This document shows positions 9,127 to 60,770 of a stretch of 64,000 nt of DNA, piece by piece; position 1 is the first letter of the stretch; every line of letters starts with the position of its first letter. The notes beneath the pieces are model-generated. The model did not search any database. It saw only the letters and a list, made by a program, of their open reading frames with translations, and was not told where the DNA came from. The translations under genes and the position numbers were made by a program. Source of the DNA: Diabrotica undecimpunctata. Taxonomy: Eukaryota > Arthropoda > Insecta > Coleoptera > Chrysomelidae. The stretch lies in contig NC_092812.1 of assembly GCF_040954645.1 (NCBI RefSeq), forward strand, positions 1,054,001 through 1,118,000, written 5' to 3'.

Positions 9127-9442
9127 TGTTACAAAAATATTCTATTTTTATAAATTAAAGGTAGTATAGTCGGACCAGCTCTTTAAGATTTGGTTTAAAT
9201 CCAATACATACCCGGAGAGTGGGGTGGGTAAAATGTTATGGCCCAATTTTATCGAATAATGCCGCGTATCAGACCATTAGCCATAACCCAGCGGAGGTGT
9301 TGTTGTCACCTATCTATGGTTGTCACCTGTCAAGAACTACACTTTATGTTTTTACTTTAAATTTTTATTAAATAGTGAAGTTAATTGTAAGAATGCTTAG
9401 AGCAAATAATATGGATGGTTACAAAGATTTGAATATCCCCAG

Positions 9443-9500
<58 letters not shown>

Positions 9501-10795
9501 AGGTGTACACTACTTTATCAACGGTAAGTTTCTAAATTAATATTATATCACACCGTTTGTATTTTGTGGTAATTTATTCCTACTAAGTTTCTAACACTAA
9601 GTTAACTAAATTAAATAAACCTTGTAATCTATACCCCTAATTAGTAACTAAATATCTACCTTTACTTATGATCTAACTTAATCTAATTATACTTTAAACT
9701 ACTAATTATAATTTAAGGTTACTTTTATTTTAGATATCAATAGTTTCAATTATCTAAACGTCTGGTGGAAGAGAAGGTTATTATAAATACATCAGTTGTA
9801 TGTAACCACAGATAAACTATTTGAATATGTGACTAGTATTATCCCAAATATGATAAGGTAGACAAGATGGATGAAGGGAAGGTAAAATGGTTCATTCTCA
9901 CCAAGTTTATTGTTCACTTTCCTTCTTAGGGTCTATAGCTTGGTCTTCTTTATATCCAATAACCCTACAATCAGCTTCTGGAAGTTGTAGATCCAAACGA
10001 CGAACAGCTTGTATGGAAGCCAATAAAAAGTAAACACCAGATAGAAGATTTGAAGGAGGAGACGAATATAAAATAAAAGTATAAGGTCTGAAAGTAAAAG
10101 AATAGTCTTAGAAAGTGTTTAAGTTGTGATTGATGGAATAATAGGTCTTAGATAGGACTTACCGTTGATGTAAGGTGACCTTAATGTAAAATATATCTCA
10201 ATCAAGAATTTAATCCGCTATAAGCGCCTATTTTACAAATAGAATTGATTCCTGATCCTGTTGAGGTGAAATTGAGTTTAAAATCCAGAAATTTCCTGTA
10301 TATTCAGTACCCTTGGCACATGTGAACCCAAAAATCTCAACTTTTTTCCTCAAAAAAAAACAACTCAAAAAACCCACAAATCCAACTTTTAAACGAACTG
10401 ATGACAAGATATCCTGTCTCCAACCTATTAGGACCAACAATTCAAAGTACAACTTTTAGTTCTATGAACCAATAAATTGACCTTTAGAAGTTGATGTTAA
10501 ATAACCTGTAAGAAGAGGCTAAATGTCATGTCACTCAAGATAAGCATACCCTGCCATTAACCTAACAGGTGACAGTTTTGATAAAGAAAACATTTGATAA
10601 GAAAACAATAACCTAAAGAAGAACAATTTGAAAGATACATGAAGATACTACCAGAAGAAAAATCAAGCCCTTTATGAAATTATAATTAAGTAAGTTTTTA
10701 TAAAATAAATTCAAAGGCAATTTATTGTCTATTTTATTTCTAGTTTCATTGACCACATAAGGAAAATAAACAAAGGAAATATTAAACCTGTAACA
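9127..10795 (-). repeat. 3' LTR of element B (intact copy)
   Basis: 1669 bases, nearly the same as 20746-26736 after removing element C. Differences are scattered substitutions (for example C/T near 9207) and a longer TA run at 9445-9496. It preserves the empty target site ATACCCTGCC near 10547-10556, where the other LTR carries element C. The polypurine tract (minus strand TTAGGGGAGAGT) lies just outside at about 10796-10807. Confidence 0.93.
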
Positions 10796-17176: not shown

Positions 17177-18452
17177 TATATATCCCAAATATTTAAGTTC
17201 TGGTTTACAAAAATGGCATTTCTCTCGATTGAGCGTCAAACCCGCATCTTTAAGTTTCCGAAAAACTTTAGCCAGTACATCCAGGTGTTGTTCAAAGGTT
17301 GGAGTACAAATGATGATGTCGTCTAGATAGACGAATACGAATTGTTCCAGTTCATATCCTATGACACGATCAATAAATCGTTGCCAAGTCGCGGGGGCTG
17401 AATGCAGCCCAAAAGGCATTCTCTTAAATTGAAATAGTCCTCGCGTGGGGACAACAAAAGCCGTTAGAGGTCTGCTAGCCTTAGCCACTTTTATCTGCCA
17501 ATAAGCTGACTTGATATCTAGTGTCGAAAGATATCTTGCATCCCGTAATTTGTCCAGGGTGGATGAGACAAAAGGTATAGGATATGCGTCCTTTTCACTA
17601 ACTTCGTTAAGTTTTTTGTAATTGACACAAAATCGGTAGGATCCATCAGGTTTTCTGACCAAAACAATAGGAGAAGCCCAAGGGGAAGTCGATGGTTCTA
17701 TTATGTCTTCTTTTAACATCTTATCTAGTTCAGTATTCACATGTTTTTGCAAAGCCGGTGAAAGAGGGTAATGTCTTTGTTTTATAGGTTGAGCAGTGGT
17801 TCTTATCTCATGTTCGACTAAATTAGTACATCCTATTTGCACGGAAAGTGGTCTCGATCAATTCGTCCAAATGCATCTTTTGTGTCGTAGATAGACTCTC
17901 GACGAAATGGATGGCCATTATGTGATTTAGTGGTAAATCATTGTCTGTCCGAAAAGACCATTGTCCGGAGTATAAGTCAGGAACGATGTTCATGGAAATC
18001 CAAAAATCTATGACCAGGATAGCGGTGTGTGGAAGGCTAGGTACCACCATTACCTCCATAATTTTCACCCTATCTTGTAGTTGGATGGGTATAGTGATGG
18101 AACCAAGAATAGGACACCTTACACCGTTGGCGACAGTACATTCCCTAGGTTGTCCCGAAGGTTTCAGTGTACACACTCTTTTAAGTCGTTCCCAACCAAG
18201 ACTACCGATAACTGTCTTAGAACATCCACTGTCTAACAAAGCTAAAAATTGATTACCTAAAATCGTGATGGACAAATAAGGTCGAGTGTCATGCTTTGCA
18301 TGAGCTAATACAAAATCTAGTAGTACGGACATAGAAGAAATTTTGGAAGTCGGATTTTCAATAGCTGATCCCGACCGACTTACTGTGGACCGGCCCGGAA
18401 GTTTTCTGTGCAGGTAGGACAATTCTTTACCATTACTCCGGCATAACCACAC
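17177..18452 (-). pseudogene. pol: Element B Pol: protease and first part of RT
   Basis: The minus-strand frame starts inside the end of Gag (overlap 18380-18452), as usual when Pol is made by ribosomal frameshifting. Protease has its active site as LLDSGCSKTVI. RT follows with CVNYKKLNEVSEKDAYPIP, STLDIKSAYWQIKV, MPFGLHSAPATWQRF and the catalytic VYLDDIIICT. A frame break near 17823-17842 separates protease from RT. RT is cut after LKYLGYI by the LINE and continues at 12838. Together with 10892-12838 this is one broken pol gene. Confidence 0.87.
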
Positions 18453-20209
18453 TTAAAGCAGAATTTTTTACGCGGATCAGGACAATTTCGGAATTTATGC
18501 GTATCTTTGTGGCAGTTCCAACACTGTGGTTGTCGGCTAGTAGTGGTGGAGTGAGAAGTAGAAGAAGAGGTAGGAGGGTCTCCTAAAGTACTGGTCCTAC
18601 TATCAGTGTGGTCGGAAAAGTTTCCTTGTTGGCCAGTGCTTCCTAAGGAGGTCCGTATCGCGGAGATGTGTGGTGGTTGAGATGGACGATGGTATGCCAG
18701 TTCCGGTTCAAGTAAGTTTCTATAGGAGGTAGAAGGTGGGGTGAAATTCTTCACTCTTTCTTCTGTCTCCTCAACGGCTCTACATAACCGTATTAACTCC
18801 TGAACTGTCCTAACCTGATGGAGGGCTAATTGACTCTGGATATATGGTAAAAGGTTTCTTCGTAAGATGTTTACTCGGTACTCTTCGGATGGCTGATGGT
18901 CTAATCGGCGAAATAAGTTCTCCACTGCGGTTATGTAAGTCAGAACTTTCTCTTGGCTACCTTGAGTCCTACGGCGAATTTCGTCCCATAAACTGTACTC
19001 GTAGTCATATGGTCTAAACGCATCCCGTAACTGAGTCACTAGGTCATCCCAAGAATGAAAATTTCCTGTCCTGAACCAATACAACGCCTCTTTTTCGAAG
19101 AGTTCCGGGGCAGATAGAAGAAGTTGGGCTTTACTTATGCCACGTGAGAGCCGGAGTTCTTTAACTCGTTCCAAAAATTCGTTAACGCTAGAACGCCCGT
19201 TGAATCTGAGATTCCATCGATAAACGAGTGGATTTGAAGAATATGTCCCCTCTCCGTAACCAGGTACAGAAGTAGTATTAGGTCCCAGACGAAGGTTACC
19301 AAACTGCGGGGCAAGGGATCCTGCGGTATCCACAAATCTACGGGAACAACTAGGTTCTTCTAGCGTTGTCATATTACGGGGATATTCCATTTCATCAATA
19401 GCCACTATCCGTGAAATATCAGAAGTGAAGTGAACTTTGGAATTGGATGAACTAGGAAGCTCCTCGTGTGTTTTATTTAGTCCTCGTGGAAAAGGTGCTC
19501 GGGCTGAATCCAGGTACGAACTAGATTGCCTAGTCAAAAATTTGCTCGTATATGGAGGAGGGCGGTTTAAATTGTTCTCCGGATGGTCTACAATGTCTCC
19601 TATGATGTTTAGGCTTCTTGAGATATTGGGTAAACATGGGGGGTTCAAGGTATCCAGAAGGGATTCTTCGGTTTCCCTACTAACCACTGGATTCCGTTGA
19701 CCATTTGGTTCTGTTCCGATAGCGGCAGCCGGATCCTCACGTGAGAGTAGATATCGGTTTATCTCTCGTGTTACATCACCACGGTTTCTTCGCATTGGGC
19801 TAACCATTTCATATGCCATATTTAAGTTGGTAAATAATTGGTTACATTGCGTAGTAAGTTTGCATCGTTCTTGCTCATCTTCACGGTTATCGCCTTTAAA
19901 CCTTTCCAATCGATGAGATAAGTGTATCAGTCGTGCACATATTCTACGAAAATCATTTTCATAGTTATCTGGATCAATTTCATTTATCATTTCAGCTAAC
20001 TCTTCTACTTTATCTCGACAAACTGCATATTCTTCAGCGAAAGTCAATGAAATGCAAGATGTAGCTATTTCTTGATTTCCTGTTTCCTTTTCAGATCGAA
20101 GTACCTGTCGTAATTTTGCTCGCTTTTCTTCTACTGTAGCGCCAACCGGTATGCCTCTGATCCGTAGTTCATATGTTAATTCCTCATTCTTTAATCTGTT
20201 TCCTTCCAT
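18380..20209 (-). CDS. gag: Gag of element B, SAP-like N-terminus and zinc knuckles
   Basis: I take the ATG at 20209; an upstream in-frame ATG at 20290 would add a hydrophobic stretch that is probably leader. The first ~40 residues (EELTYELRIRGIPVG and on) resemble a SAP helix-turn-helix. A disordered middle follows, then the capsid (YRWNLRFNGRSSVNEFLERV through EALYWFRTGNFHSWDDL). The C-terminus has a canonical CX2CX4HX4C knuckle (CWNCHKDTHKFRNC) and a second (CFKCGYAGVMVKNC) in which His is replaced by Val. Gag would form the particle around the RNA. The frame is open over 600 codons. Confidence 0.87.
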   Translation of the reverse strand: MEGNRLKNEELTYELRIRGIPVGATVEEKRAKLRQVLRSEKETGNQEIATSCISLTFAEEYAVCRDKVEELAEMINEIDPDNYENDFRRICARLIHLSHRLERFKGDNREDEQERCKLTTQCNQLFTNLNMAYEMVSPMRRNRGDVTREINRYLLSREDPAAAIGTEPNGQRNPVVSRETEESLLDTLNPPCLPNISRSLNIIGDIVDHPENNLNRPPPYTSKFLTRQSSSYLDSARAPFPRGLNKTHEELPSSSNSKVHFTSDISRIVAIDEMEYPRNMTTLEEPSCSRRFVDTAGSLAPQFGNLRLGPNTTSVPGYGEGTYSSNPLVYRWNLRFNGRSSVNEFLERVKELRLSRGISKAQLLLSAPELFEKEALYWFRTGNFHSWDDLVTQLRDAFRPYDYEYSLWDEIRRRTQGSQEKVLTYITAVENLFRRLDHQPSEEYRVNILRRNLLPYIQSQLALHQVRTVQELIRLCRAVEETEERVKNFTPPSTSYRNLLEPELAYHRPSQPPHISAIRTSLGSTGQQGNFSDHTDSRTSTLGDPPTSSSTSHSTTTSRQPQCWNCHKDTHKFRNCPDPRKKFCFKCGYAGVMVKNCPTCTENFRAGPQ

Positions 20210-20745
20210 GATAATTAATATTAAATATCCAGTTCTTAATACATTCAATGAAAATATAAAACAGTTTTTCGAACTTACAACTAACAACAAAAAGAATGGT
20301 ACTATCTAAATACCGAATAAAGTGTCTATTTCTATAATAATTTAGAGTTCGCAAAAAAATTTATATAACAAATGAAAGAGTATACACAAAAATATAGTCA
20401 TGTAAACACACAATTTCCCCTCCTTCCAGGAAGAAAAGAAATTTAAAAGAAAGTCACTCCTAAAATGTGAAATTTTTTTTTTTGTTACAAAAAAAATTTT
20501 TTTATAAATAATATAAAGATTTAATTAGAAAGTTGTATATAAATAAATATGATAATTTTGTTGTGTTGATGTTTTATATATATGTTTATTAAAGATTAAG
20601 GTGTAGGTAGGTTTAAGTACAATATAGCACTAGTATTATTATTTTATTTATTTATTTTTTTATAATAACCTTCCGTTTTTTAACTACAAAATGTAAACCA
20701 CAAAAAATAACAATAGAAAAGCCTTTAAACCACGTAGGGCGCCAC
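20210..20745 (-). other. Element B 5' leader and primer-binding site
   Basis: About 536 bases between the LTR and Gag start. On the minus strand, immediately inside the LTR (20744-20730), is TGGCGCCCTACGTGG, a typical gypsy primer-binding site. The rest is AT-rich with no ORF. Confidence 0.75.
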
Positions 20746-22129
20746 TGTTACAAAAATATTCTATTTTTATAAATTAAAGGTAGTATAGTCGGACCAGCTC
20801 TTTAAGATTTGGTTTAAATCCAATATATACCCGGAGAGTGGGGTGGGTAAAATGTTATGGCCCAATTTTATCGAATAATGCCGCGTATCAGACCATTAGC
20901 CATAACCCAGCGGAGGTGTTGTTGTCACCTATCTATGGTTGTCACCTGTCAAGAACTACACTTTATGTTTTTACTTTAAATTTTTATTAAATAGTGAAGT
21001 TAATTGTAAGAATGCTTAGAGCAAATAATATGGATGGTTACAAAGATTTGAATATCCCCAGCGTATATATATATACCTTGGGTGTACACTACTTTATCAA
21101 CGGTAAGTTTCTAAATTAATATTATATCACACCGTTTGTATTTTGTGGTAATTTATTCCTACTAAGTTTCTAACACTAAGTTAACTAAATTAAATAAACC
21201 TTGTAATCTATACCCCTAATTAGTAACTAAATATCTACCTTTACTTATGATCTAACTTAATCTAATTATACTTTAAACTACTAATTATAATTTAAGGTTA
21301 CTTTTATTTCAGATATCAATAGTTTCAATTATCTAAACGTCTGGTGGAAGAGAAGGTTATTATAAATACATCAGTTGTATGTAACCACAGATAAACTATT
21401 TGAATATGTGACTAGTATTATCCCAAATATGATAAGGTAGACAAGATGGATGAAGGGAAGGTAAAATGGTTCATTCTCACCAAGTTTATTGTTCACTTTC
21501 CTTCTTAGGGTCTATAGCTTGGTCTTCTTTATATTCAATAACCCTACAATCAGCTTCTGGAAGTTGTAGATCCAAACGACGAACAGCTTGTATGGAAGCC
21601 AATAAAAAGTAAACACCAGATAGAAGATTTGAAGGAGGAGACGAATATAAAATAAAAGTATAAGGTCTGAAAGTAAAAGAATAGTCTTAGAAAGTGTTTA
21701 AGTCGTGATTGATGGAATAATAGGTCTTAGATAGGACTTACCGTTGATGTAAGGTGACCTTAATGTAAAATATATCTCAATCAAGAATTTAATCCGCTAT
21801 AAGCGCCTATTTTACAAATAGAATTGATTCCTGATCCTGTTGAGGTGAAATTGAGTTTAAAATCCAGAAATTTCCTGTATATTCAGTACCCTTGGCACAT
21901 GTGAACCCAAAAATCTCAACTTTTTTCCTCAAAAAAAAAACAACTCAAAAAACCCACAAATCCAACTTTTAAACGAACTGATGACAAGATATCCTGTCTC
22001 CAACCTATTAGGACCAACAATTCAAAGTACAACTTTTAGTTCTATGAACCAATAAATTGACCTTTAGAAGTTGATGTCAAATAACCTGTAAGAAGAGGCT
22101 AAATGTCATGTCACTCAAGATAAGCATAC

Positions 22130-22383
22130 TGTGGCAGATTGACAGTTAACCGCCAGCCACACATGGGTTGACTGTGCTATTGAAGTGAGGGAACGTCGAC
22201 GGAGAAAAGAAGAGGAGATCAGAGCAGCTGATGGCTGTCAGAACACGATCACACGACGAGGTGACAACGAAAAGAACTCTTACAGTTTTCTTACTTGTTT
22301 TTAGTATGTAGTTTATTGCTAATAAATCAATAAAACAGTTTAAAGTGTGCCCCGACTACTTTGCTTCCCGCAAACAGGCCACA
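22130..22383 (+). repeat. 5' LTR of element C
   Basis: 254 bases, TGTGGC to CCACA. An AATAAATCAATAAAAC polyadenylation-like stretch lies near 22321-22336. Confidence 0.95.
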
Positions 22384-22433
22384 TTGGTGACCCCAAGAAA
22401 AAAAACTGTAAGTACAACGATTTATACACAACT

Positions 22434-23342
22434 ATGACAAACACCGACCAAACAATGCCAAACAATATGAATATTACACCGTGCGAAGGCGATAATCACT
22501 CATTAATTGCACGGGTAGGCATTAAAGCGCCAGAGTTTTGGCGCACTGAACCAGAACTATGGTTTCTCCGGCTAGAAGCGCAGTTTCGACAAGCCAAAAT
22601 CACAACTGACAACTGTAAATTCGACCATACTGTTGCTAGTTTAAACAGCGAAGTACTTATAGAAGTAGCAGACATAGTAAAGAATCCCACTGCTGGCAAT
22701 GCCTATATACAACTAAAAACTCGACTTCTCGACAGGTATGGCACCAGCTCAGATGAAAAGATCCACAAGTTGATGGAACTCACTCTGGGTGACCTAAAAC
22801 CCACTCAACTACTCCATCGAATGCAAGCTTTGGCCATGGATAGCATTAGTACGCAAGTTCTCAAAAATTTTTGGTTGGACCGCCTACCACCTTCAGTTCG
22901 AAGCGTTATATCTATTCTTGATGAAGACCTAGAAGAACTTGCTAAGAAAGCCGATACGTACCTACGGTGTTCCAGTTTTCCAGTCATGGTTGTTACCGAA
23001 AGCTCTACCTTAGACAAAACAGTGGCTGCATTGAGTAACCAAGTGAATGCTTTATCCAACAGATTAACTGTAGCTGAAGAAGGGCAACAGATTCAAATGA
23101 CCAAGAGTACCAAGTCATCATCAGACGAACAGTGTTACTACCATCGAAGATTTGGTGCACAAGCAAAGAAATGTAGACCACCCTGCAAAAAAATGTTTTT
23201 TTACAAAAAACGATCAAAGGGCGCAGTAATGGCGGCAACCGCAGCCCCTTACATACCACGCCGCCTCTTCATTACCGATAGTGCTCTCCAACTTCAATTT
23301 CTTATTGATACAGGGGGCAGACCTAAGTGTGCTTCCACGTAA
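22434..23342 (+). CDS. gag: Gag of element C, with atypical zinc finger
   Basis: I choose the ATG at 22434, ~50 bases past the LTR; the frame is open further back into the LTR without a better start. The capsid includes FWRTEPELWFLRLEAQF, then NAYIQLKTRLLDRYG and LPPSVRSVISILDEDLEEL. The finger is CYYHRRFGAQAKKCRPPC, the Cys-His-Cys-Cys type seen in CsRn1-like Gags rather than CX2CX4HX4C. The frame runs into protease (LIDTGG) but shifts at a run of five G at 23313-23317, after which residues to the stop at 23342 are out of frame. Confidence 0.82.
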   Translation: MTNTDQTMPNNMNITPCEGDNHSLIARVGIKAPEFWRTEPELWFLRLEAQFRQAKITTDNCKFDHTVASLNSEVLIEVADIVKNPTAGNAYIQLKTRLLDRYGTSSDEKIHKLMELTLGDLKPTQLLHRMQALAMDSISTQVLKNFWLDRLPPSVRSVISILDEDLEELAKKADTYLRCSSFPVMVVTESSTLDKTVAALSNQVNALSNRLTVAEEGQQIQMTKSTKSSSDEQCYYHRRFGAQAKKCRPPCKKMFFYKKRSKGAVMAATAAPYIPRRLFITDSALQLQFLIDTGGRPKCAST

Positions 23343-24930
23343 AATCTGCACTGCGACTCAGCCCAGCACTGTACGCCTGTATTCTGCCACCGGATCGTGC
23401 ATCCAAACATATGGTCAGAAACAGCTCACACTAAACCTTGGTCTAGGCCAACCTGTAACATGGACATTTGTAGTCGCAGATGTCACCACACCCATACTAG
23501 GAGCCGATTTTCTGACGTACCATGGCATTAGTGTAGACATGAGAAACAAACGACTAGTAAGTCCAAGTATGTCAAGCAGTATTACCTGTGTGTCTCGTCG
23601 TGTTAGGGTGCCAGAAGTAGGCTTATCCACTGCTCATCCCTATGATCGTCCAACTGTTGCTATACCAGAGGATACTGAAAGAGTTCAGCACTATATTGAG
23701 ACTTGAGGTACACCAGTTTTCTCTAAACCACGAAGACTTCCACCAGACCGTCTTCAAGCTGCACGAGCAGAATTCAACGAGCTGATGCAGGCAGGCATTA
23801 TCCGACCATCAAAGTCATCTTGGGCCAGTCCGCTTCACTTAGTTCAGAAGTCCAATGGACGATGGCGTGCCTGTGGAGACTTCCGCCGTTTAAATGCCAT
23901 GACAAAACCAGATCGCTACCCTATACCGCACATCCAGGATTTTGCTAACCAGCTACATGGTAAGAAAATTTTTTCTCTTGCATCGACTTGGTACGTGCTT
24001 TTTACCAAATTCCAGTCCACCCGAAGGATGTCCAAAAGACGGCTGTAATAACCCCCTTTGGGCTGTACGAGTTCCTCCGAATGCCGTTCGGTTTGCGAAA
24101 TGCTGCCCAGACGTTCCAGAGATACCTCGATCACCTTTTTCGAGAATGCTCATATGTGTATGTATACATTGACGATATCTTGATTGCCTCGGATACTGAG
24201 ACTGAGCATGAGCAAGACCTGGCATCAGTACTTCGGATTCTGGAAGCAAATGGACTCCAAATAAACAAGGATAAATCAAAATTCCGTAAACGTGAAGTAA
24301 ACTTCCTGGGTGCCACGGTATCCCCAACTGGCGTTCGTCCATTACCGGCTAAAGTTAGCGCGATTCGTAAGTTTCCACAACCTACGACCTATCGACAGCT
24401 ACGACGATTTATGGGTATGTTCAATTTCTACAGACGTTGGTTACCTAATGCTGCCAATGAGCTAATGCCACTAACGGAGTTATTGTCTCAGCAAAAGAAA
24501 AAGCAGCAAGAACTAACATTAACATCAGCAGCTGCAGCAGCTTTCACCAAGGTAAAAGAACTCTTGGCCGCGTCGACTGAATTGGTCTTTCCAGCACCAA
24601 ATGCCCAATTGAACATGTCAGTTGATGCCTGAGATGCTGCCATCGGCGGTGTTTTGCAACAGCTTATAGGTGAACATCTACAGCCCATCGCTTTCTTCTC
24701 TCGAAAGCTTTCTAAGACGGAGCGAAACTACAGCACTTATGACCGAGAGTTGCTTGCCATATTCAGTGGCATACATCACTTCCGCCATTTTCTTGAGGGT
24801 ATGCCATTTACCATTTATACTGATCACAAGCCTTTAACGTTTGCCTTCCAACAGCGACATGAGCGGCAGTCTCCACGACAGATACGTCAACTAGAATTTA
24901 TTGGCTAATTCTCCATATCGTTGCCGATTG
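23281..24930 (+). pseudogene. pol: Element C Pol: protease, RT and RNase H, multiply broken
   Basis: Protease begins around the shifted five-G run (DTG, then ADLSVLPRKI in the next frame) and includes TTPILGADFLTYHGI. A TGA at 23704-23706 interrupts the protease-RT linker. RT shows SSWASPLHLVQKSNGRWR, a frame break near 23975-23990, FYQIPVHPKDVQKTAVI, PFGLRNAAQTFQRYL and the catalytic VYIDDILIA. A TGA at 24630-24632 starts RNase H (DAAIGGVLQQ, YDRELLAIF, YTDHKPL). Near 24905 bases are missing, with loss of the RNase H end and another shift. At least five lesions make this inactive. Confidence 0.88.
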
Positions 24931-26245
24931 TCTCTCACGACCTGAAGTAGACGCTATCACAACACCCATTACTATTGACTATGACCGGCTATCCGAAGCT
25001 CAGACTACAGATGAGGGTCTTTAACAGACCCTGAACGATCCTGCCAGTTCCTTACAACTTCAACGCATAGTTCTACCAGATAGCCAGCGGCCTATTTATT
25101 GTTCAGTCCAAGATGGTCGTATACGAGTTTATGTGCCAGCTGTGTTTCAAAGAGATGTTTTCCTGAAGTTCCACACGCAGTCCCACCCAGGGCATGCTGC
25201 TACATTACGAATGATTGCTGAACGTTTTGTGTGGCATAACATGAATCGCCAAGTCAAGCAGTGGTCACGAGAGTGCATCCAATGTCAACGTGCCAAAATC
25301 GGACGTCACACTGTTACACCTGTGACACCTCTAGGAATGCCAGACGATCGATTCGCACACATACATGTCGACATCGTTGGCCCACTTCCAGCAAATCAGA
25401 ACTTTCGATACCTGCTCACAATCATCGACCGTTTCACAAGATGGCCAGAGGCCATACCTATCTCGGAGATTACAACCGAAGTTGTCGCGCAGAAGCTCCT
25501 TGAGGGATGGATATCCCGGTTTGGCGTGCCAGCAACCATAACAACGGACCGAGGTAGGCAATTTGAGAGCCAGTTGTTTCGCCAGCTCAATGGATTTCTA
25601 GGTGTACAACATATTAAAACCACTGCCTACCACCCACAATCAAACGGATGTATTGAACGTTTCCACCGAACGCTCAAGGCTGCTCTAATCGCCGCGGACA
25701 CAGTATTGTGGGTTGAAGCCCTACCTCTGGTCATGCTAAGCCTTCGAAACACTTTCAAACAAGACATTGCATGTACAGCCTCCGAGTTAGTGTATGGTAC
25801 CCCAGTGAGTCTCCCTGGACAGCTGCTTGTCCCTAGTGTTGTTACACCCGACGAGCATAGTTTTGTCCAACGACTACGTGAGACTATGGGAGCATTGCGT
25901 CCTGTACCGACGAGCAACCACTCAGCCCGTACTGCCTTTGTCCATCCGGATCTACAGACTACGAGTCATGTGTTTGTGCGAACCGATAAAGTGAAGCCTC
26001 CTCTTACACCTCCCTATACCGGCCCGTTTAGAGTGTTAGAACGAAGTGATGAGTTTGTAACTGTGGATGTCCAAAATGTTCGTCAGCGAATTTCCATGGA
26101 CCGACTCAAACCAGCATATATTCCAGCGGCCCAACAGGTGCAGGAAGAACATGCATATGCCAACCGTCTGATGAGAAACACAAGTCAACATAGCCGTTCG
26201 AAACCAGCAGGTTCCTCACTGGAGGGGAGCCCTGTGGCAGATTGA
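24931..26245 (+). CDS. pol: Element C integrase
   Basis: The frame resumes before 25133 ([11 protein letters not shown] near 24923-24957) and has a stop TAA at 25021-25023; from 25133 it is open. The zinc region has HTQSHPGHA and CIQCQRAK. The core has Asp in [10 protein letters not shown], Asp in [10 protein letters not shown] and Glu in NGCIERFHR; the last two are about 35 residues apart. The tail holds [17 protein letters not shown] (GPY/F-type) and ends in RLKPAY. It is the best preserved domain of element C and would insert the cDNA. It ends 13 bases inside the 3' LTR. Confidence 0.85.
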
Positions 26246-26486
26246 CAGTTAACCGCCAGCCACACATGGGTTGACTGTGCTATTGAAGTGAGGGAACGTC
26301 GACGGAGAAAAGAAGAGGAGATCAGAGCAGCTGATGGCTGTCAGAACACGATCACACGACGAGGTGACAACGAAAAGAACTCTTACAGTTTTCTTACTTG
26401 TTTTTAGTATGTAGTTTATTGCTAATAAATCAATAAAACAGTTTAAAGTGTGCCCCGACTACTTTGCTTCCCGCAAACAGGCCACA
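26233..26486 (+). repeat. 3' LTR of element C
   Basis: 254 bases that appear identical to 22130-22383. The integrase frame ends 13 bases inside it. Confidence 0.95.
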
Positions 26487-27436: not shown

Positions 27437-28009
<573 letters not shown>

Positions 28010-31000
28010 TTGCCCCCCTCTCAAAAGATGGTTCCTCCTGGAACCTTGTCGGGACTAGAACTGGAACGGTATGCTGGTATCGGCAACTGGGCCCTCTTTT
28101 ACAACTTCCAGTTGTATAAAAATGACAAGGGACGGTTTTCTCTCCGCACCAGTAACTATGCGGATTGCAACAGACTAACACCTGGACTTCGGTGTCTTTA
28201 AAGATCTCCTCCACCATATTTCGTATAACCCTCCAATCTAATTGGCGGCACTCCAACTTTGGCATGGCTAACTTTTGCACGTCGGACTCTAGTACGTGCT
28301 TTCTCAATTGAAGTAAGGCTTCCCATACATCTCGGTAGGTAGGTTGGTCACGGGCAGTGTCTTTTGTTACCAGGTAGAAAAGGTAACGTGATGCATCTTG
28401 GAGTTTCAAGGTTTTACCGGGAGCTGGCACTTGGCATTGAAGTTCTGCAACTCGACCAAACTTCCTTCGAAAGACGGATGCCAACCCTGGTGCGTCTTTG
28501 ATACTGGCCGGGATGGTAAGGGCCAGCGAGTGGTCATCGGGGAGCGCGAGTAGATCTTGCTTTTCTTCAGTGGTAACACCATGTCTTGCTTTACCGGTAC
28601 CTCCATAGGCACCCATGAATTCCTCAAACCTGAGGTCAGACACATCTTGGACTTGGTTTACTTCCACTTCTTCATCTACGTCGTGGTCACCTTCGAAAGA
28701 TGCCAACCGGTTATGGTGTACTATCATCGGCTTTCCCCTCGGAATCTTGCTTATTCGGTAAATGACATCGTTGATCTTCTCCATGATGAGGTATGGACCT
28801 TCCCAAGACTGCTGCAATTTGGGAGAACAACCTTTTCGCTTCTTGGGATTATACAGCCATACTTTGTCGTTCTTCTTAAAGCAACCCTTTTCGGCTTGTG
28901 TATCGTACCGTTTCTTCATTCGGTCGCTAGCGATCTGAAGGTGGGAACGGACCAACTCATGTACATCGTCCATTCTTCTTCGTAATTCGATCACATAATC
29001 TTCACCTGCTACATCTTCTCCAGGTCGACACCCAAATTCTAGATCACAAGGTAGTCGCATTTCGCGTCCGAATAGGACTCTGGCTGGTGTCTGGCCCGTT
29101 GATTCGTTAACAGCAGATCTGTAGGCCATTGTGAAGAACGGAAGGTATTGGTCCCAGTCTCGCTGATGATCGGACACCATCTTTGTCAAATACTTGGCAA
29201 CTGTCCTATTCATTCGTTCTACCATACCATCCGATTGCGGATGATACGCGGTAGTTCTTGTTTTCTTCATGCCTAGTCTATCACATATTCCTTGGAATAG
29301 ATCACTTTCGAAGTTCCTGCCTTGGTCACTATGGATCTCCAAAGGCACTCCAAATCGGCTGATATATTCTTGGATCAACTTATCTGCAACGGTGGCGGCC
29401 TTCTGGTCGGGAAGTGCGTAAATCTCGACCCACTTAGTAAAGTAATCCATTACTACCAGCATGTACTTGCCTCCATTTTCACTTTCTGGAAATGGCCCAG
29501 CGATGTCCAAAGCTATTCTTTCAAACGGGCTTCCAACATTATATTGTCTCATAGGAGCTCTCCTTTTTCGGTAAGGCCCGTTACTCGTGGCACAAATAGT
29601 ACATTTCTTACACCAGTCTTTTACATCGTCGGAACTGTTCATCCAATAAAACCGTTCCCGAATTCGCTGAAGGGTTTTCCTTACACCAAAATGCCCTCCC
29701 GATGGACTGTCGTGTAACTGACGAAGTACTTCGGCTATTCTGCTCTTTGGGATCACCAACTGTCTTCTCTTCTCCGAACCGTCATCATTTTCCAGGACTC
29801 GTTTGAGCAAGCCATCTTCGATGATAAATGAGTCCCACTGGACCCAATACGTCTTAACTACTGAGCATAGGTTTGATATTTCCTGCCAAGGTGGTCGACG
29901 GTTTTCCTCTTTCCATTTTCGGATTTTCTGTATAACTGGATCTCTCTCTTGTTCTTCCCTTATCTTAGTAGGCGTCCAGTCGTCGTTGACAATCGTCGTT
30001 CTTAGCACTGCTGCTTCCTTGGATTCCGTTTTGTTGCAGTGGGAACACTCTGCTGGGCATGGCCTTCTGGAAAGAGAATCAGCGTTTCTATGGCTAACTC
30101 CGGCCCGGTGCTCAATCTTAAAATCGTATTCTTGGAGTCGTTCGATCCACCTGGCTATCTGACCCTCTGGATTCTTAAACTGCATCAACCACTTAAGGGC
30201 GGCATGGTCGGTTCGGATTAGAAACTTTCTGCCATAGAGGTATTGATAGAAGTGCTCTACTGATTTCACTACTGCCAGAAGTTCTCTTCTCGTGACGCAA
30301 TAATTCCGTTCAGGTTTTGAAAGAACTTTACTAAAATATCCGAGAACTCGTTCCTGTCCTCCTTGAATCTGAGACAGCACTCCTCCAATTCCCACATTAC
30401 TTGCATCCGTATCTAAGATGAACTCTCCCTCTGGCAGTGGATACCCTAAAATTGGTGCTGTTATTAAATGCTTTTTCAACGTTTCAAAGGCATTTTGGCA
30501 GTCTATATCCCAGCGGTATTCTCTTGCTTCCTCTGTAAGTCGCGTTAATGGCTTAGCGATATCTGCAAACTTCTTAATAAACCTTCGGTAGTAAGTACAT
30601 AGTCCAAGAAAACTTCTCACTTGGTGTTTGTCAGTTGGTTTTGGCCATTCCTTAATGGAATCGATTTTTCCCTTATCCACGGCCACTCCTTCTTTACTGA
30701 CTATATGACCCAGATAATTGACTCTACCTTGAAATAGCTGGCACTTCTTGGGGTTTAGCATCAATTGGGCAGCTTTAAGTCGATTAAAAACGTTTTCTAA
30801 ATTCCTCAAATGATCTTCGAATGTCTCCCCCAAGACGATTATGTCATCTAAATAAACCAGGCATGTTTTCCAAGATAACCCTCTCAACACATTTTCCATA
30901 AGCCTCTCAAATGTGGCAGGAGCATTACAGAGTCCAAATGGCATAACGTTGAATTGCCACAATCCAGATCCTGTGGTGAAGGCTGTCTTTTCTTTATCTA

Positions 31001-32227
31001 CTGGGTCCATTTCTACCTGCCAGTATCCAGACTTCAAATCCAAAGTAGAAAACAATTTACTTTCAGCCAATGTGTCCAATGTGTCATCGATCCGAGGCAG
31101 AGGATAACTATCTTTCTTGGTAACGTTGTTCAGCAAACGGTAATCCACACAGAACCTCGTCGTTCCGTCTTTCTTCTTAACCAGGACCACCGGAGAGACC
31201 CATGGGCTCGTAGAAGGTTCTATCACCCCGTCTTTCTTCATTTCCTGAACAATCGTTTCAGCTTCCTCTCTTTTCGCCTGTGGTAATCGTCGCGCTGTTT
31301 GACGAATTGGCTTAGCATTACCAGTATCTATTTTATGCTTAACAACCGTAGTTCTTCCCGTCTTTCCTACTTTTGGTACGAAAATATCACGATACTGCCG
31401 AAGAAATTCCCTTAATTTCCTTTTCTCCATCTGATTTAGAGACTGTCCTGCAACTGCAACCATTTGGTCGAATTTGTCGTTGGAATTATCAGATGTTGTC
31501 GCCTGACGGATTATGGATGTCACAGGTACACAAGTTCCTACTTTTGTCTCTTTCTTTATGGTCACTGGGTAGTAGTTGACATTGATAAGTCTCACAGGAA
31601 TTTCTTTAGCCGAAGTCACCAATTCCTTTCCAATTATGATTCCACGGCCAACCTCATCGTCGTGGTTCCAAGGCTCCATCATAACAGGTCTCCCTTCGTC
31701 TACAATTCCCTGTAGTCGCGCTACTATGATCGTTTCGCTTCTCGCAGGCACGACTGTATCTTCTGTAATGGCTGCTTGCACAGTGTTGTCATTATGTGGA
31801 TGGAGAAATACCTCCTCGTTGCCAACTTTGATTACCTTATTCTTAAAATCCAATTGGAATCCATGCATATTCATTACGTCCATTCCTAATATAACATCCT
31901 CTTCGATGTCAGCAACTATAACAGTATGGACAAACTTTTCTGCCCCAATTCCCAATTGTACCTGGATTTCTCCATGAATGTTGGCATTTTCACCTGTAGC
32001 GGTCCGAAGTCGCAACCTCGTTGGTAACAGTTTCTTACGGCTGTTTATAACTGTCGGGCGTATAATGGTTCTGGTCGCTCCGGTATCCACCAACAACGTA
32101 TGCTTTTTACCATTTATGTCTCCATCTACATATACACTATCTTCACGACATTTCAAAGAAGCTATTAGTATGAGAGGGTCTTTGAAAAAGTTCTGGGTCG
32201 AGGCTGCCCCCCTAAGGCTGACCCGTT

Positions 32228-33511
32228 CTAGTTTTCCTGATGGTGAGTTTCTTGATTTGCGTCGTACCTAGGGTGCTTACAGGAGCTTCGTACGTGTCCT
32301 ATTTCGCCACAATTCCAGCATCTGATGGTCTTCGTTTTCTTGTATGCCATGCTTTTCATCATATTAACAAGCTGGTAAAGTTTATCTTCATCTCCTGCTT
32401 CTTTTACAGTTCTAACTTTACTGTACCCGCCAGAGGCCTGCGTAGCTGACTCGTATTCGAGGGCGGCGGATAAGACATCAACCAGCGTTTTGTGACGAGC
32501 TAATCGCAGTGTTCTCTGCATTTCATGATCACGAAGACCATCAATAAACGTCTGAACGGCCAATTTTTCCATCATGTCTTCGGGAGCTGTTGGATAAGCA
32601 TATCGTACTAATCTGGCAATATCTACCTCATATTCTTGAAGAGCCTCATATTTCTTCTGTCTACGATTTTTAAGCTGCGACTGATATACATGCTCCAAAT
32701 GTTCGTGGCCATATCGCATATTTAACCTCTTCTTCAGTTGTTCGAAATCATCGGTCTCCTCTACGGCTATGGTCTGAAGCACATCTAAGGCATCTCCTCG
32801 AAGAGCGATAGTCAGGTTTACAGCCTTTTCTTTTTCAGACCATCCATTCGCTCTTGCGGCTGATTCGAACTGTTTCATGTAGTTGTTCCATGATGATTTT
32901 CCGTCGAAAGTTGGGACTTTAACATGAATAGAACCTCCACTTCCTTCAAATTTCGGCCGTGTCTCCAACTTACATTTCGTCTCGTCTTCTTTTATCTCCA
33001 CTGTAATCGGATTGTTACCTCTCTCTGCTGTCCCTGTTTCCTCCATCTTCCTTTCCATCTCTTTCCATATCTTTTCTTCGAAGGCCAACATATCGGCAGC
33101 AACTTGGTTTTTTAACGAAGAGACTCTATCGTCAAGAGCAGATATCTCTGAAGTGACTTTAGAGATGTTAGCAGAAACTTTGCTTTCCAGAGAAGAAATC
33201 TCGTTAGAAACTTTGCTTTCTAAAGAAGCGATGTCGCCGGATACTTTGTTCTCCAATGATGCGATGTCGCCGGAAACTTTGGCTACATCAGAAGAAACTT
33301 TCGAAATATCGTCAGAGACTTTGTTCTCCAATTTCGAAATCGACGAGATGACAGCATCTTCAAATATATAAGTCTCTGGATCTAGACCTTCTTCTAGCAA
33401 AGCGTTCTTTAGTCGTTGGACTAACTCAGCCTTTTTTCCGGTAGAAGCTAATTCTCTGTCTTCGAGATGTCTTCTTAAATTCGTCACTGTGAGCTCATAA
33501 ATCGTAGCCAT
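32228..33511 (-). CDS. gag: Gag of element D: SAP-like start, repeated coiled coil, zinc knuckle
   Basis: 427-429 residues; ATGs at 33517 and 33511, the second (MATIYEL) having the better context. Residues ~5-42 resemble a SAP motif (TVTNLRRHLEDRELAS, then KAELVQRLKNALLEEG). Residues ~60-140 are a coiled coil of 11-residue repeats, such as IASLENKVSGD and IASLESKVSNE. The capsid spans ~195-345 (VPTFDGKSSWNNYMKQFE, LTIALRGDALDVLQTI). One canonical knuckle, CWNCGEIGHVRSSC, lies at ~400-413. The frame ends 72 bases before the first TTG of Pol, and the Pol frame overlaps it in -1 register. Confidence 0.9.
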   Translation of the reverse strand: MATIYELTVTNLRRHLEDRELASTGKKAELVQRLKNALLEEGLDPETYIFEDAVISSISKLENKVSDDISKVSSDVAKVSGDIASLENKVSGDIASLESKVSNEISSLESKVSANISKVTSEISALDDRVSSLKNQVAADMLAFEEKIWKEMERKMEETGTAERGNNPITVEIKEDETKCKLETRPKFEGSGGSIHVKVPTFDGKSSWNNYMKQFESAARANGWSEKEKAVNLTIALRGDALDVLQTIAVEETDDFEQLKKRLNMRYGHEHLEHVYQSQLKNRRQKKYEALQEYEVDIARLVRYAYPTAPEDMMEKLAVQTFIDGLRDHEMQRTLRLARHKTLVDVLSAALEYESATQASGGYSKVRTVKEAGDEDKLYQLVNMMKSMAYKKTKTIRCWNCGEIGHVRSSCKHPRYDANQETHHQEN

Positions 33512-33552
33512 TTTCACAATTTATTTTACGTATTCCACTATTCCGACACCAA

Positions 33553-33968
33553 TGTTATGTTATTTATTTCAATGTCTATTTAATTTATAATGTCTTGTTC
33601 TAAAGGTTCTTATCTAAATTTATTAAAAAGCACAATAACTGATACTAATTTATTTATCACTAAATATACATAATTTATTAGTAGGCGAGCGTAACAACAA
33701 TATCGCGAGCGCGAATCTTCTTTATTAACTGTTTTCAAAATAAAAGTTCCCTCATATTTATACGAAAACAGCTGCTCTAGAACTGCATGGATGTTGACCT
33801 CAATTGACCTGGTTTCGCCTCGAATGGACAGGCCTAATTCCGGAAGATTCGAATGGAACCAGTTTTTTATTACTTGGGGTTTATGGTCGAAAGGTCTCGT
33901 ATAATCTAAAACATATTAGTGAATAAAAACATGTTTACAGGTTAAAACTATGACTCATATTTTTACGT

Positions 33969-33972
<4 letters not shown>
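33553..33972 (-). repeat. 5' LTR of element D
   Basis: 420 bases, apparently identical to the other LTR. Just inside it on the minus strand (33551-33535) is TGGTGTCGGAATAGTGG, the primer-binding site. Confidence 0.95.

Positions 33973-34031
<59 letters not shown>
33973..34031. repeat. (TA)n microsatellite
   Basis: Pure TA tract right of element D, the other half of the target at 27437-27589. Confidence 0.95.
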
Positions 34032-34044: not shown

Positions 34045-34671
34045 TTCTTGGGCTTAGGTTCATAACAAAAAATTTTTAATTTGATACTAAGACATTTTCA
34101 TATATTTTTTCGACGTTTCGACAGGAAAGCCATACCTTTTTCAAGAAGTAATATTGACTAAAAAAACATTTTATGACATACATAATACGGTTTAAAAGTT
34201 AAACTTTTGACTTACCAAGCATGTAAAAATTCGGTACTAACAAGTCGACGTCACAATTAAAATAATATTAAAAACATAGGACATACCCACTAAGTCACTA
34301 CATGTAAAATGTATTTTAAATCTAATGTGTTGTTTATTGATGTTAGTTTATCGTTTAAACAATCAGTTATTTTAACATCATAGGCGTTCTGAGATTGTCT
34401 TTTTATGTGTTTTTAAATTAAGTTAAAATATATTTTGTTCAAATTTTTGACATCTTTTTTATCATTTTTTTTTATTTTTATAGACTCTAGAAGCTCTCCC
34501 TTCTTCCTGTTGGGTTCACTTCCCAGGATCTTGGTTTTCTCAAAATCAAATTTATGTTTCTTTCGTTTTCATGTTTTGTGAGGGCGGTTGAGTTTTTTTG
34601 TCATATTTGTGGGAACGTATTCTTGAGTTAAGTAGCTGACTGGTTTGTCCAATATAAACTCCATCACAATA

Positions 34672-34673
<2 letters not shown>
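34045..34673 (-). pseudogene. Penelope-like element remnant with GIY-YIG endonuclease
   Basis: On the minus strand near 34665-34600 it encodes CDGVYIGQTSQLL followed by NSRIRSHKYD, the GIY-YIG nuclease core with its Arg and His. After a frameshift come KHKFDFEKTKILGSEPNRKK and LLESIKIK, the usual end of Penelope-like proteins. The rest (34045-34440) is 3' UTR with GTCGAAACGTCG near 34110-34122, typical of these elements. The RT portion is missing. It lies between two TA tracts. Confidence 0.82.

Positions 34674-34732
<59 letters not shown>
34674..34732. repeat. (TA)n microsatellite
   Basis: About 58 bases of TA between the Penelope-like remnant and the RTE-like LINE. Confidence 0.95.
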
Positions 34733-59292: not shown

Positions 59293-60770
59293 TTAAAAAT
59301 TTTTTTAATAAAATCCTTTATAAAGAGGTATACAAAAACCCAGTCGGGCTATGTTAAATAGACAAAACGTTTTCGGAATAAATATTCCATCATCAGTGTC
59401 CTAAAAAAGTATTTAACCACTTAATTAAAAAGAACATGAAATAATTTAAATTTTGACCAAGGTTAATGTAAAATGTGGTTAATGCTTACGGGTTAATACA
59501 TGAATGTAGCCACTAAATATGGAGGTAAAAACCCTTTAAAAATTACTACCTAATTGAAATTTAGTTTACATTATTTCTTGTATAAAATTAAGATGGTAAA
59601 GTTACCGTTGGATTGGTAACATGGCGACATATGACTCTACATTAAGTTGCAAGTCCTGAGACGGTATGTCTACGAGGACTTTATGAAAGCAACTGATTGA
59701 AATGACAATCTTGACAGGTTATGACGGAAGTTGTAACAGAGCAGTCAGTGTAACTGTATGTGTCTATTAAGGACAGAAGCCAACGTTATTTAAAATTGTG
59801 AAAGTTAAAATAAAAATAACAAAATTATAACAGTATCAACCATCAATGTTGTTGTTTTAAATTGTGTATGTGAGATGAAATTGTGGTGAGAAAATTATGT
59901 GATTGCAGTTAGGCAACCAACTATACAAGTGTCAAGTGGTGTGGTGAAAAAGATTCTAATATAAGGCCCTTTATGTTTCATTAATATTTGGTACCTGGAA
60001 AATGAAAACTAGACACAGGTGGAAAGTTGGGTTCTTGAAAAAGTATAGGAATTAATATATTTAATATGTGAGAATGTTTTTGAGTGAATGAATTAAAACT
60101 TTTGTAATATAAAGTTCATGTAAAATTTGACTTATAACTCAATTATATAAGGCCCTGTATGTCAAAAAGCAACATTTGGTACCTGGTAAATGTAAAACTT
60201 CTAGACTTACAAGTTCATGAATATAAATATCTGATTAAGTGTTAACGGACTGAGTGATGTAGTTATATTTTGTGTGTTAACAAATATATGAAATGGACAA
60301 AATTTGATGGTTGGAAGTGGTTTTGTAATATATTGATCGTAAAGTACTCAACTTATAACTTGAGAAAAGGCCTTATCTGTTATAAAGCAACATCTTGCTT
60401 GTTGCTTTATATTGCCATGTCATGGCGACATAATATATGTCGCCATGTTACCAATCCAACGGTAACTTTACCATCTTAATTTTATACAAGAAATAATGTA
60501 AACTAAATTTCAATTAGTAATTTTTAAAGGGTTTTAACCCCCATATATAGTGGCTACATTCATGTATTAACCTGTAAGTATTAACCACATTTTACATTAA
60601 CCTTGGTCAAAATTAAAATTATTTCATGTTCTTTTTAATTAAGTGGTTAAATACTTTTTAAGGACACTGATGATGGAATATTTATTCCGAAAACGTTTTG
60701 TCTATTTAACATAGCCAGACTGGGTTTTTATATACCTTTCTATAAAGGATTTTATTAAAAAAATTTTTAA
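59293..60770. mobile_element. Foldback element with ~335-base inverted arms
   Basis: The arm 59293-59631 is the near-exact inverse of 60434-60770. Outer ends (AAATTTTTTTAATAAAATCC) are flanked by TTAA, possibly a duplication. The ~800-base centre codes for nothing recognisable; it holds two diverged direct repeats (ATAAGGCCCT..TTTGGTACCTGG near 59961 and 60148) and a 12-base perfect hairpin at 60421-60447. Each arm contains a hammerhead-like CTGATGA / stem / GAAA / GTC block (60667-60702; inverse at 59361-59396). It splits a LINE RT. Penelope-type elements are the likely parents (inference). Confidence 0.82.

What the first reader, a model, noticed from the sequence alone, without database searches (positions are those of the whole stretch)
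28071..28544. Gypsy Pol carrying a TARG1/OARD1-like macro domain and a CCCH zinc finger
Seen: in element D the integrase is followed by ~125 residues matching the ADP-ribose-hydrolase macro fold of the TARG1/OARD1 group (DAPGLASVFRRKFG; YLFYLVTKDTARDQPTY; KLAMPKLEC; VIRNMVEEIF), then a CX7CX5CX3H finger at Pol residues 1344-1362. The Lys in LVTK aligns with the catalytic Lys of TARG1. The loop with the catalytic Asp (GCGLD in TARG1) is about two residues shorter (ECRQLD). Known: macro domains remove or read ADP-ribose, and some viruses use them against PARP-based defence. Inference: a retrotransposon captured a cellular macro gene, perhaps to reverse ADP-ribosylation or bind RNA. I know of no description of this layout but cannot search.
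Basis: partly seen in the sequence, partly recalled or inferred. Interest (0 to 1): 0.9.

Follow-up and report, generated by a model that had tools for sequence, protein, structure and literature searches.

The report
Gypsy retrotransposon with ADP-ribose macro domain
An apparently recent insect jumping gene ends its main enzyme protein with a copy of the cellular ADP-ribose-removing domain TARG1 plus an RNA-type zinc finger, and related elements in several beetle families and probably plant bugs keep the ADP-ribose domain, most of those compared with both catalytic residues.

The parts
27590..33972 (-). Whole LTR retrotransposon (element D), inserted in a TA microsatellite
   Evidence: Two identical 420-bp LTRs 27590-28009 and 33553-33972, starting TG and ending CA on the minus strand; TA runs on both sides
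33553..33972 (-). 5' LTR
   Evidence: 420 bases, 100% identical to the other LTR
27590..28009 (-). 3' LTR; the last residues of Pol are read into it
   Evidence: (last 12 residues of the tail also match at the start of the other LTR)
32228..33520 (-). Gag ORF with SAP domain, Gag core and zinc knuckle
   Evidence: Pfam PF02037, PF03732, PF00098, each above its cut-off
27972..32267 (-). Pol ORF, 1431 codons stop to stop: protease, RT, RNase H, integrase, macro domain, CCCH finger
   Evidence: protease PF13975; RT piece 91% and RNase H-integrase piece 84% identical to relative P0001, which carries PF00078 and PF00665
28701..28799 (-). End of integrase (Integrase_p58_C)
   Evidence: Pfam PF22938, 50.5 bits, cut-off 27
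28614..28628 (-). FEEFM linker motif between integrase and macro, shared with relatives
28173..28571 (-). TARG1/OARD1-type macro domain
28554..28556 (-). Asp aligned with TARG1 Asp20, kept in 21 of 22 element copies
28362..28364 (-). Lys aligned with TARG1 catalytic Lys84, kept in 22 of 22 element copies
28233..28253 (-). Shortened loop ECRQLDW where TARG1 has GCGLDRLQW; Asp125 position lost
   Evidence: two-residue gap in 5 of 22 copies, Asp125 present in the other 17
28071..28127 (-). CCCH zinc finger CX7CX5CX3H, nearest in the PDB by sequence to CPSF30 (CPSF4) fingers
   Evidence: Pfam PF00642 28.7 bits; CPSF4 E 1.8e-13 summed over its five fingers, single fingers 4 to 20 bits; a CX6-9CX4-6CX3H pattern in 11 of 22 copies
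28010..28022 (-). Purine-rich run just before the 3' LTR, taken as the polypurine tract, read within Pol as ERGA
   Evidence: sequence; the name is inference
33535..33551 (-). Probable primer-binding site one base after the 5' LTR (TGGTGTCGGAATAGTGG)
   Evidence: sequence; the name is inference, tRNA identity not tested

Best explanation
A Ty3/gypsy-like element captured a TARG1/OARD1-type ADP-ribose hydrolase and fused it to the C-terminus of Pol; beetle lineages also carry a CCCH finger after it. As the last part of Pol it should be packaged with RT and integrase into the particle and travel with the cDNA. Most likely it recognises ADP-ribose that host PARPs put on element proteins (Glu/Asp) or on nucleic-acid ends, and in lineages with Lys and Asp it removes it, sparing replication or integration from PARP-linked repression; the finger would tether it to element RNA or cDNA. 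In the window's sublineage the Asp is lost while the fold and Lys stay, so this copy is probably a binder or a Lys-only hydrolase in the manner of DarG. Shown: element integrity, predicted fold, fusion, spread over several insects, residue pattern. Inferred: packaging, substrate, anti-PARP role, RNA binding.
For: Fold and homology (for the Aromia copy). Integrase end, linker, macro in this order in relatives; linker plus macro match P0001 without gaps over 170 residues at 68%, against 84% for RNase H-integrase and 91% for RT. Integrase-end and macro identities rise and fall together over the 21 pairs of 7 chosen elements, r = 0.85. Lys84 in 22 of 22 copies, Asp125 in 17 of 22, the other 5 forming one group with split support 100. 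At 27 positions shared by at least 15 of 17 Asp-bearing copies and 14 of 15 cellular OARD1, the five deletion copies keep 107 of 135 cells, with Asp20, Thr83 and Lys84 in all five. TARG1 removes ADP-ribose from acidic residues, from thymidine in DNA and from phosphate ends of nucleic acids, and DarG keeps only the Lys (PMC9411070, abstract and passages). In Drosophila without PARP-1, 5 of 8 significantly changed mobile elements went up, and ten more rose without passing the thresholds, nine of them gypsy-superfamily LTR elements (PMC7712786, passages).
Against: No activity, binding or expression data. The window copy lacks Asp125 and the loop Gly, and has Leu for His32. The tail evolves faster than RT and integrase. 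The finger pattern is seen in only 11 of 22 copies; some of the rest are cut short, but P0021, P0076 and P0123 read past the macro without it and in P0060 its first Cys is Ser, so it is not essential to the macro's role. 3 of the 8 mobile elements in Drosophila went down, and the authors say the rise may be indirect. Only protein, no DNA, of the insect relatives was available, so dN/dS was not measured.
Confidence: 0.55

Rival explanations
1. In the window's sublineage the macro is a pure reader: it binds ADP-ribosylated chromatin or proteins and steers integration, like a chromodomain, without hydrolysis.
For: Asp125 lost in a supported group of 5 while fold, Asp20 and Lys84 stay; chromodomains sit at the C-terminus of chromovirus integrase (abstract start of PMC3605345 in the listing).
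Against: The loop that TARG1 uses around Asp125 is shortened, which could weaken ADP-ribose binding; 17 of 22 copies keep the full catalytic pair.
Confidence: 0.3
2. The captured domain has become a structural or nucleic-acid-binding module unrelated to ADP-ribose, or in this sublineage a decaying passenger.
For: Faster divergence than RT and integrase; of 28 lost cells at widely shared positions 19 fall on positions 33, 44, 123, 125; finger nearest to CPSF30 RNA-binding fingers.
Against: Open frame without gaps over linker and macro between elements at 68% identity; Lys84 in 22 of 22; identical LTRs suggest that the element moved recently with this tail (gene conversion of LTRs is not excluded).
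Confidence: 0.2
3. A host OARD1 gene lies next to or was mis-joined with a retrotransposon, so the fusion is an artefact of one locus.
For: Some insect gene models named OARD1-like lack a visible integrase end (P0004, P0006, P0082).
Against: The domain lies between two identical LTRs in frame with Pol; other contigs and genomes show integrase end plus macro; 11 of 21 relatives run on into a peptide like the one encoded at the purine run in the window (pattern chosen by eye).
Confidence: 0.03
4. Two or more independent captures (beetle type with finger, bug type without).
For: P0006, P0021, P0076 and P0082 form a separate group (support 99) and no finger pattern was found in them.
Against: All element copies in the tree group apart from the sampled vertebrate OARD1 (split support 100); the FEEFM linker is shared by beetle copies and by P0021 and P0076, and the SRG signature by the 17 Asp-bearing copies of both types.
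Confidence: 0.15

Closest known systems
TARG1/OARD1/C6orf130 (human terminal ADP-ribose glycohydrolase)
   Same: Predicted fold, 35% identity over 136 aligned residues in the window copy, catalytic Lys84, Asp20
   Different: Fused to a retroelement Pol; window copy lacks Asp125 and two loop residues
DarG macro domain (antitoxin that removes ADP-ribose from thymidine in DNA)
   Different: Bacterial, paired with a DNA-modifying toxin; 18-25% identity
Retrotransposons with captured enzymatic or reader domains: DNMT in dinoflagellate and charophyte elements (PMC5890265, abstract and outline), AlkB-like m6A demethylase ORF in orchid Ty3/gypsy (PMC9289625, abstract passage), chromodomain and DnaQ-like exonuclease (PMC6338049, passages)
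   Same: A host-type enzyme or reader added to an LTR element
   Different: What I saw of these papers names no macro domain or ADP-ribose chemistry
Viral macro domains (alphavirus nsP3 and others)
   Different: Far lower identity, 11-13% in the structural alignments

Membership tests
TARG1/OARD1 macro-domain family | Macro fold closest to TARG1 | tested here: met
TARG1/OARD1 macro-domain family | Significant sequence homology | tested here: met
   phmmer E 1.1e-22
TARG1/OARD1 macro-domain family | Catalytic Lys84 | tested here: met
   22 of 22 element copies
TARG1/OARD1 macro-domain family | Catalytic Asp125 in GCGLD loop | tested here: not met
   Absent in the window and 4 relatives, present in 17 of 22. 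The window copy is therefore filed as a TARG1-derived macro fold, not as a TARG1-type Lys/Asp hydrolase
TARG1/OARD1 macro-domain family | ADP-ribose binding or hydrolysis | not testable with these tools
   needs protein assays
Ty3/gypsy-type LTR retrotransposon | LTRs, Gag, Pol with RT before integrase | tested here: met
   RT piece (Pol 300-640) and RNase H-integrase piece (640-1180) match P0001 in order
Ty3/gypsy-type LTR retrotransposon | Which clade (Mag, CsRN1 or other) | not tested
   no RT tree was made
CCCH zinc finger | C-X7-8-C-X5-C-X3-H above Pfam cut-off | tested here: met
   PF00642 28.7 bits, cut-off 20.5
CPSF30 (CPSF4) fingers | Origin from CPSF30 and poly(A)-signal binding | tested here: inconclusive
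   Best PDB matches are CPSF4, but its five single fingers score 4 to 20 bits; binding not testable
DarG | Action on ADP-ribosylated DNA | not testable with these tools
   only fold and the Lys compared

The most novel reading that the evidence does not exclude
Insect gypsy-type elements carry their own ADP-ribose eraser as a Pol domain that shields particles, cDNA ends or integration sites from host PARPs; a sublineage seen in a leaf beetle then dropped the Asp but kept the attacking Lys, turning an eraser into a reader or a covalent ADP-ribose trap. This would imply a PARP-based arms race against transposons in insects.
Probability: 0.3. Interest if true: 0.9.

Novelty: new variant of a known kind. 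Interest (0 to 1): 0.77.

Why it matters
Captured enzymes show which host processes hurt or help a transposon. A conserved ADP-ribose domain in LTR elements of several beetle families, and apparently of plant bugs, would point to ADP-ribosylation as a control layer on transposons in animals and make it testable, with natural variants with and without the catalytic Asp. It also warns annotators: several insect genes named OARD1-like appear to be transposon pieces.

Tried and rejected

Literature: of ten text searches, seven were aimed at a macro domain in a retrotransposon and three at TARG1 residues or PARP. No listed title or abstract start describes such a fusion. I did not open the papers found, and of the 303 papers only 25 were listed. 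The library lacks most subscription papers and holds no bioRxiv preprints, so absence is weak.

Open: host donor of the domain (no insect cellular OARD1 knowingly in the sample; the 1343 hits were listed only to the best 120, mostly vertebrates).

Rows dropped: P0007, P0008 and P0009 (chimeric gene models without the catalytic region) were left out of the residue counts; P0010 (fish OARD1) was not used; P0011, P0077 and P0087 (near copies) were left out of the tree (34 sequences: 19 element, 15 cellular). The 21 relatives were picked by hand. The 15 cellular rows are human plus 14 vertebrate OARD1, picked by hand. The 7 elements of the identity comparison were picked from the 13 of 24 with an integrase-end motif.

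Full report
What is there. The finding lies on the minus strand of an LTR retrotransposon at 27590-33972. Its LTRs (27590-28009 and 33553-33972) are identical over 420 bases, which suggests a recent insertion. Gag (33520-32228) has a SAP domain, a Gag core and a zinc knuckle. Pol (32267-27972) is one open frame of 1431 codons, stop to stop, with a protease (PF13975), RT and RNase H-integrase pieces 91% and 84% identical to relative P0001, and the Integrase_p58_C end (50.5 bits). After that come a linker, the macro segment and a CCCH finger. The frame ends inside the 3' LTR, and a purine run that I take as the polypurine tract is read as part of Pol.

Is it conserved in sister elements? Yes. 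A search scored on the tail alone found one protein, P0001, a 1339-residue Pol with the same tail, ending at the finger: linker plus macro 68% identical over 170 residues without gaps, finger 70% over 23, RT 91%, RNase H-integrase 84%. A tail search found eight more proteins, among them Diabrotica, Aromia, Nilaparvata and Psylliodes gene models. A profile search returned 1343 proteins, of which 120 were listed; these include element-type proteins from Aromia, Molorchus, Brassicogethes, Gonioctena, Pyrocoelia and Macrosteles, and unnamed contigs with integrase ends. That these are leaf, longhorn, pollen and firefly beetles and plant-sucking bugs is recalled. In 13 of 24 sequences checked an integrase-end motif is visible; many of the others are short gene models. 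A finger pattern is present in 11 of 22. In 11 of 21 relatives the protein runs on into a short peptide like the one that the purine run encodes in the window (pattern chosen by eye), which suggests that there too the macro or finger is the last part of Pol; this is an inference from protein letters. Integrase-end and macro identities correlate over the 21 pairs of 7 chosen elements (r = 0.85), as expected if they were inherited together; the pairs are not independent.

Catalytic state. In 22 element copies (the window and 21 relatives) the Lys84 position is Lys in all 22, Asp20 is Asp in 21, and Asp125 is Asp in 17. The other five (window, P0001, P0002, P0003, P0004 of Diabrotica) share a two-residue deletion and have Arg, Asn, Ser, His and Arg there. 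These five form one group (split support 100). The Asp in the window's 'QLD' is Lys in P0001 and Asn in P0003, so it is no conserved substitute. At 27 positions shared by at least 15 of the 17 Asp-bearing copies and 14 of the 15 cellular OARD1, the five keep 107 of 135 cells; 19 of the 28 losses fall on positions 33, 44 (Ile to Leu), 123 and 125. Several of the 17 are near copies from one species (Aromia 4, Molorchus 3).

Origin. Element copies form a group apart from 15 sampled vertebrate OARD1 (split support 100, branch 0.94), and the 17 Asp-bearing copies share an SRG signature in the ligand loop that none of the other proteins among the 128 held shows. No insect cellular OARD1 was knowingly sampled, so the donor and the number of captures stay open. 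The bug proteins P0006 and P0082 show no integrase end; they group with P0021 and P0076, which do, but they could be host genes.

How it may work. TARG1 removes ADP-ribose from acidic residues, from thymidine in DNA and from phosphate ends of nucleic acids; Lys84 and Asp125 are its proposed catalytic pair, and DarG has the Lys but not that pair (PMC9411070, abstract and passages). SCO6735, which has neither residue, still hydrolyses (same source). So loss of Asp125 does not by itself prove loss of activity. In Drosophila without PARP-1, 5 of 8 significantly changed mobile elements rose and 3 fell; ten more rose without passing the thresholds, nine of them of the gypsy superfamily; the authors note that this may be indirect (PMC7712786, passages). 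I therefore think that the domain acts on ADP-ribose made by host PARPs, on element proteins or nucleic-acid ends, after being packaged as part of Pol. The Asp-bearing lineages would be erasers; the window's lineage a reader or a Lys-only hydrolase. Recalled, not from a call (the search found no paper on it): an Asp125 mutant of TARG1 was reported to stay covalently joined to ADP-ribose, which would make a covalent trap thinkable here.

Known or new? LTR elements with captured domains are known: DNMT (PMC5890265, abstract and outline), AlkB-like demethylase ORF (PMC9289625, abstract passage), chromodomain and exonuclease (PMC6338049, passages). Seven text searches aimed at a macro domain in a retrotransposon listed no title or abstract describing one; most papers found were not opened. 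I rate it a new variant of a known kind: a new captured chemistry in a known class of element.

Limits. 

Noticed in passing
L001:512-1033: IMG/VR contig IMGVR_UViG_3300010233_000005 (78.8 kb) encodes a stand-alone 173-residue TARG1-like protein with a GCGLDKLQW loop, so a contig classed as viral also carries this macro type.
   Followed up: partly
22129-26486: A second LTR element on the plus strand with identical 255-base repeats (22129-22383, 26232-26486) whose Gag-Pol-like reading is split over several overlapping frames; no macro tail by tblastn.
   Followed up: no
18380-20305: Minus-strand ORF of 641 aa that by eye looks like a different Gag with zinc knuckles.
   Followed up: no
27441-27589 and 33973-34030: Element D sits inside a long TA microsatellite, with TA runs on both sides; another TA run lies near 34665-34730. 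Possible target preference.
   Followed up: no
9127-10549 and 20746-22129; 59293-59632 and 60435-60770: A 1.4-kb direct repeat (96.6%) and a 340-base inverted repeat (95.6%) elsewhere in the window.
   Followed up: no
proteins P0004, P0006, P0007, P0009, P0082: Public insect gene models seem to contain pieces of this element family: 'OARD1-like' genes in Diabrotica, Nilaparvata and Macrosteles, a Diabrotica tachykinin-receptor model with a macro piece, and a Diabrotica model joined to a transposase-like part.
   Followed up: partly
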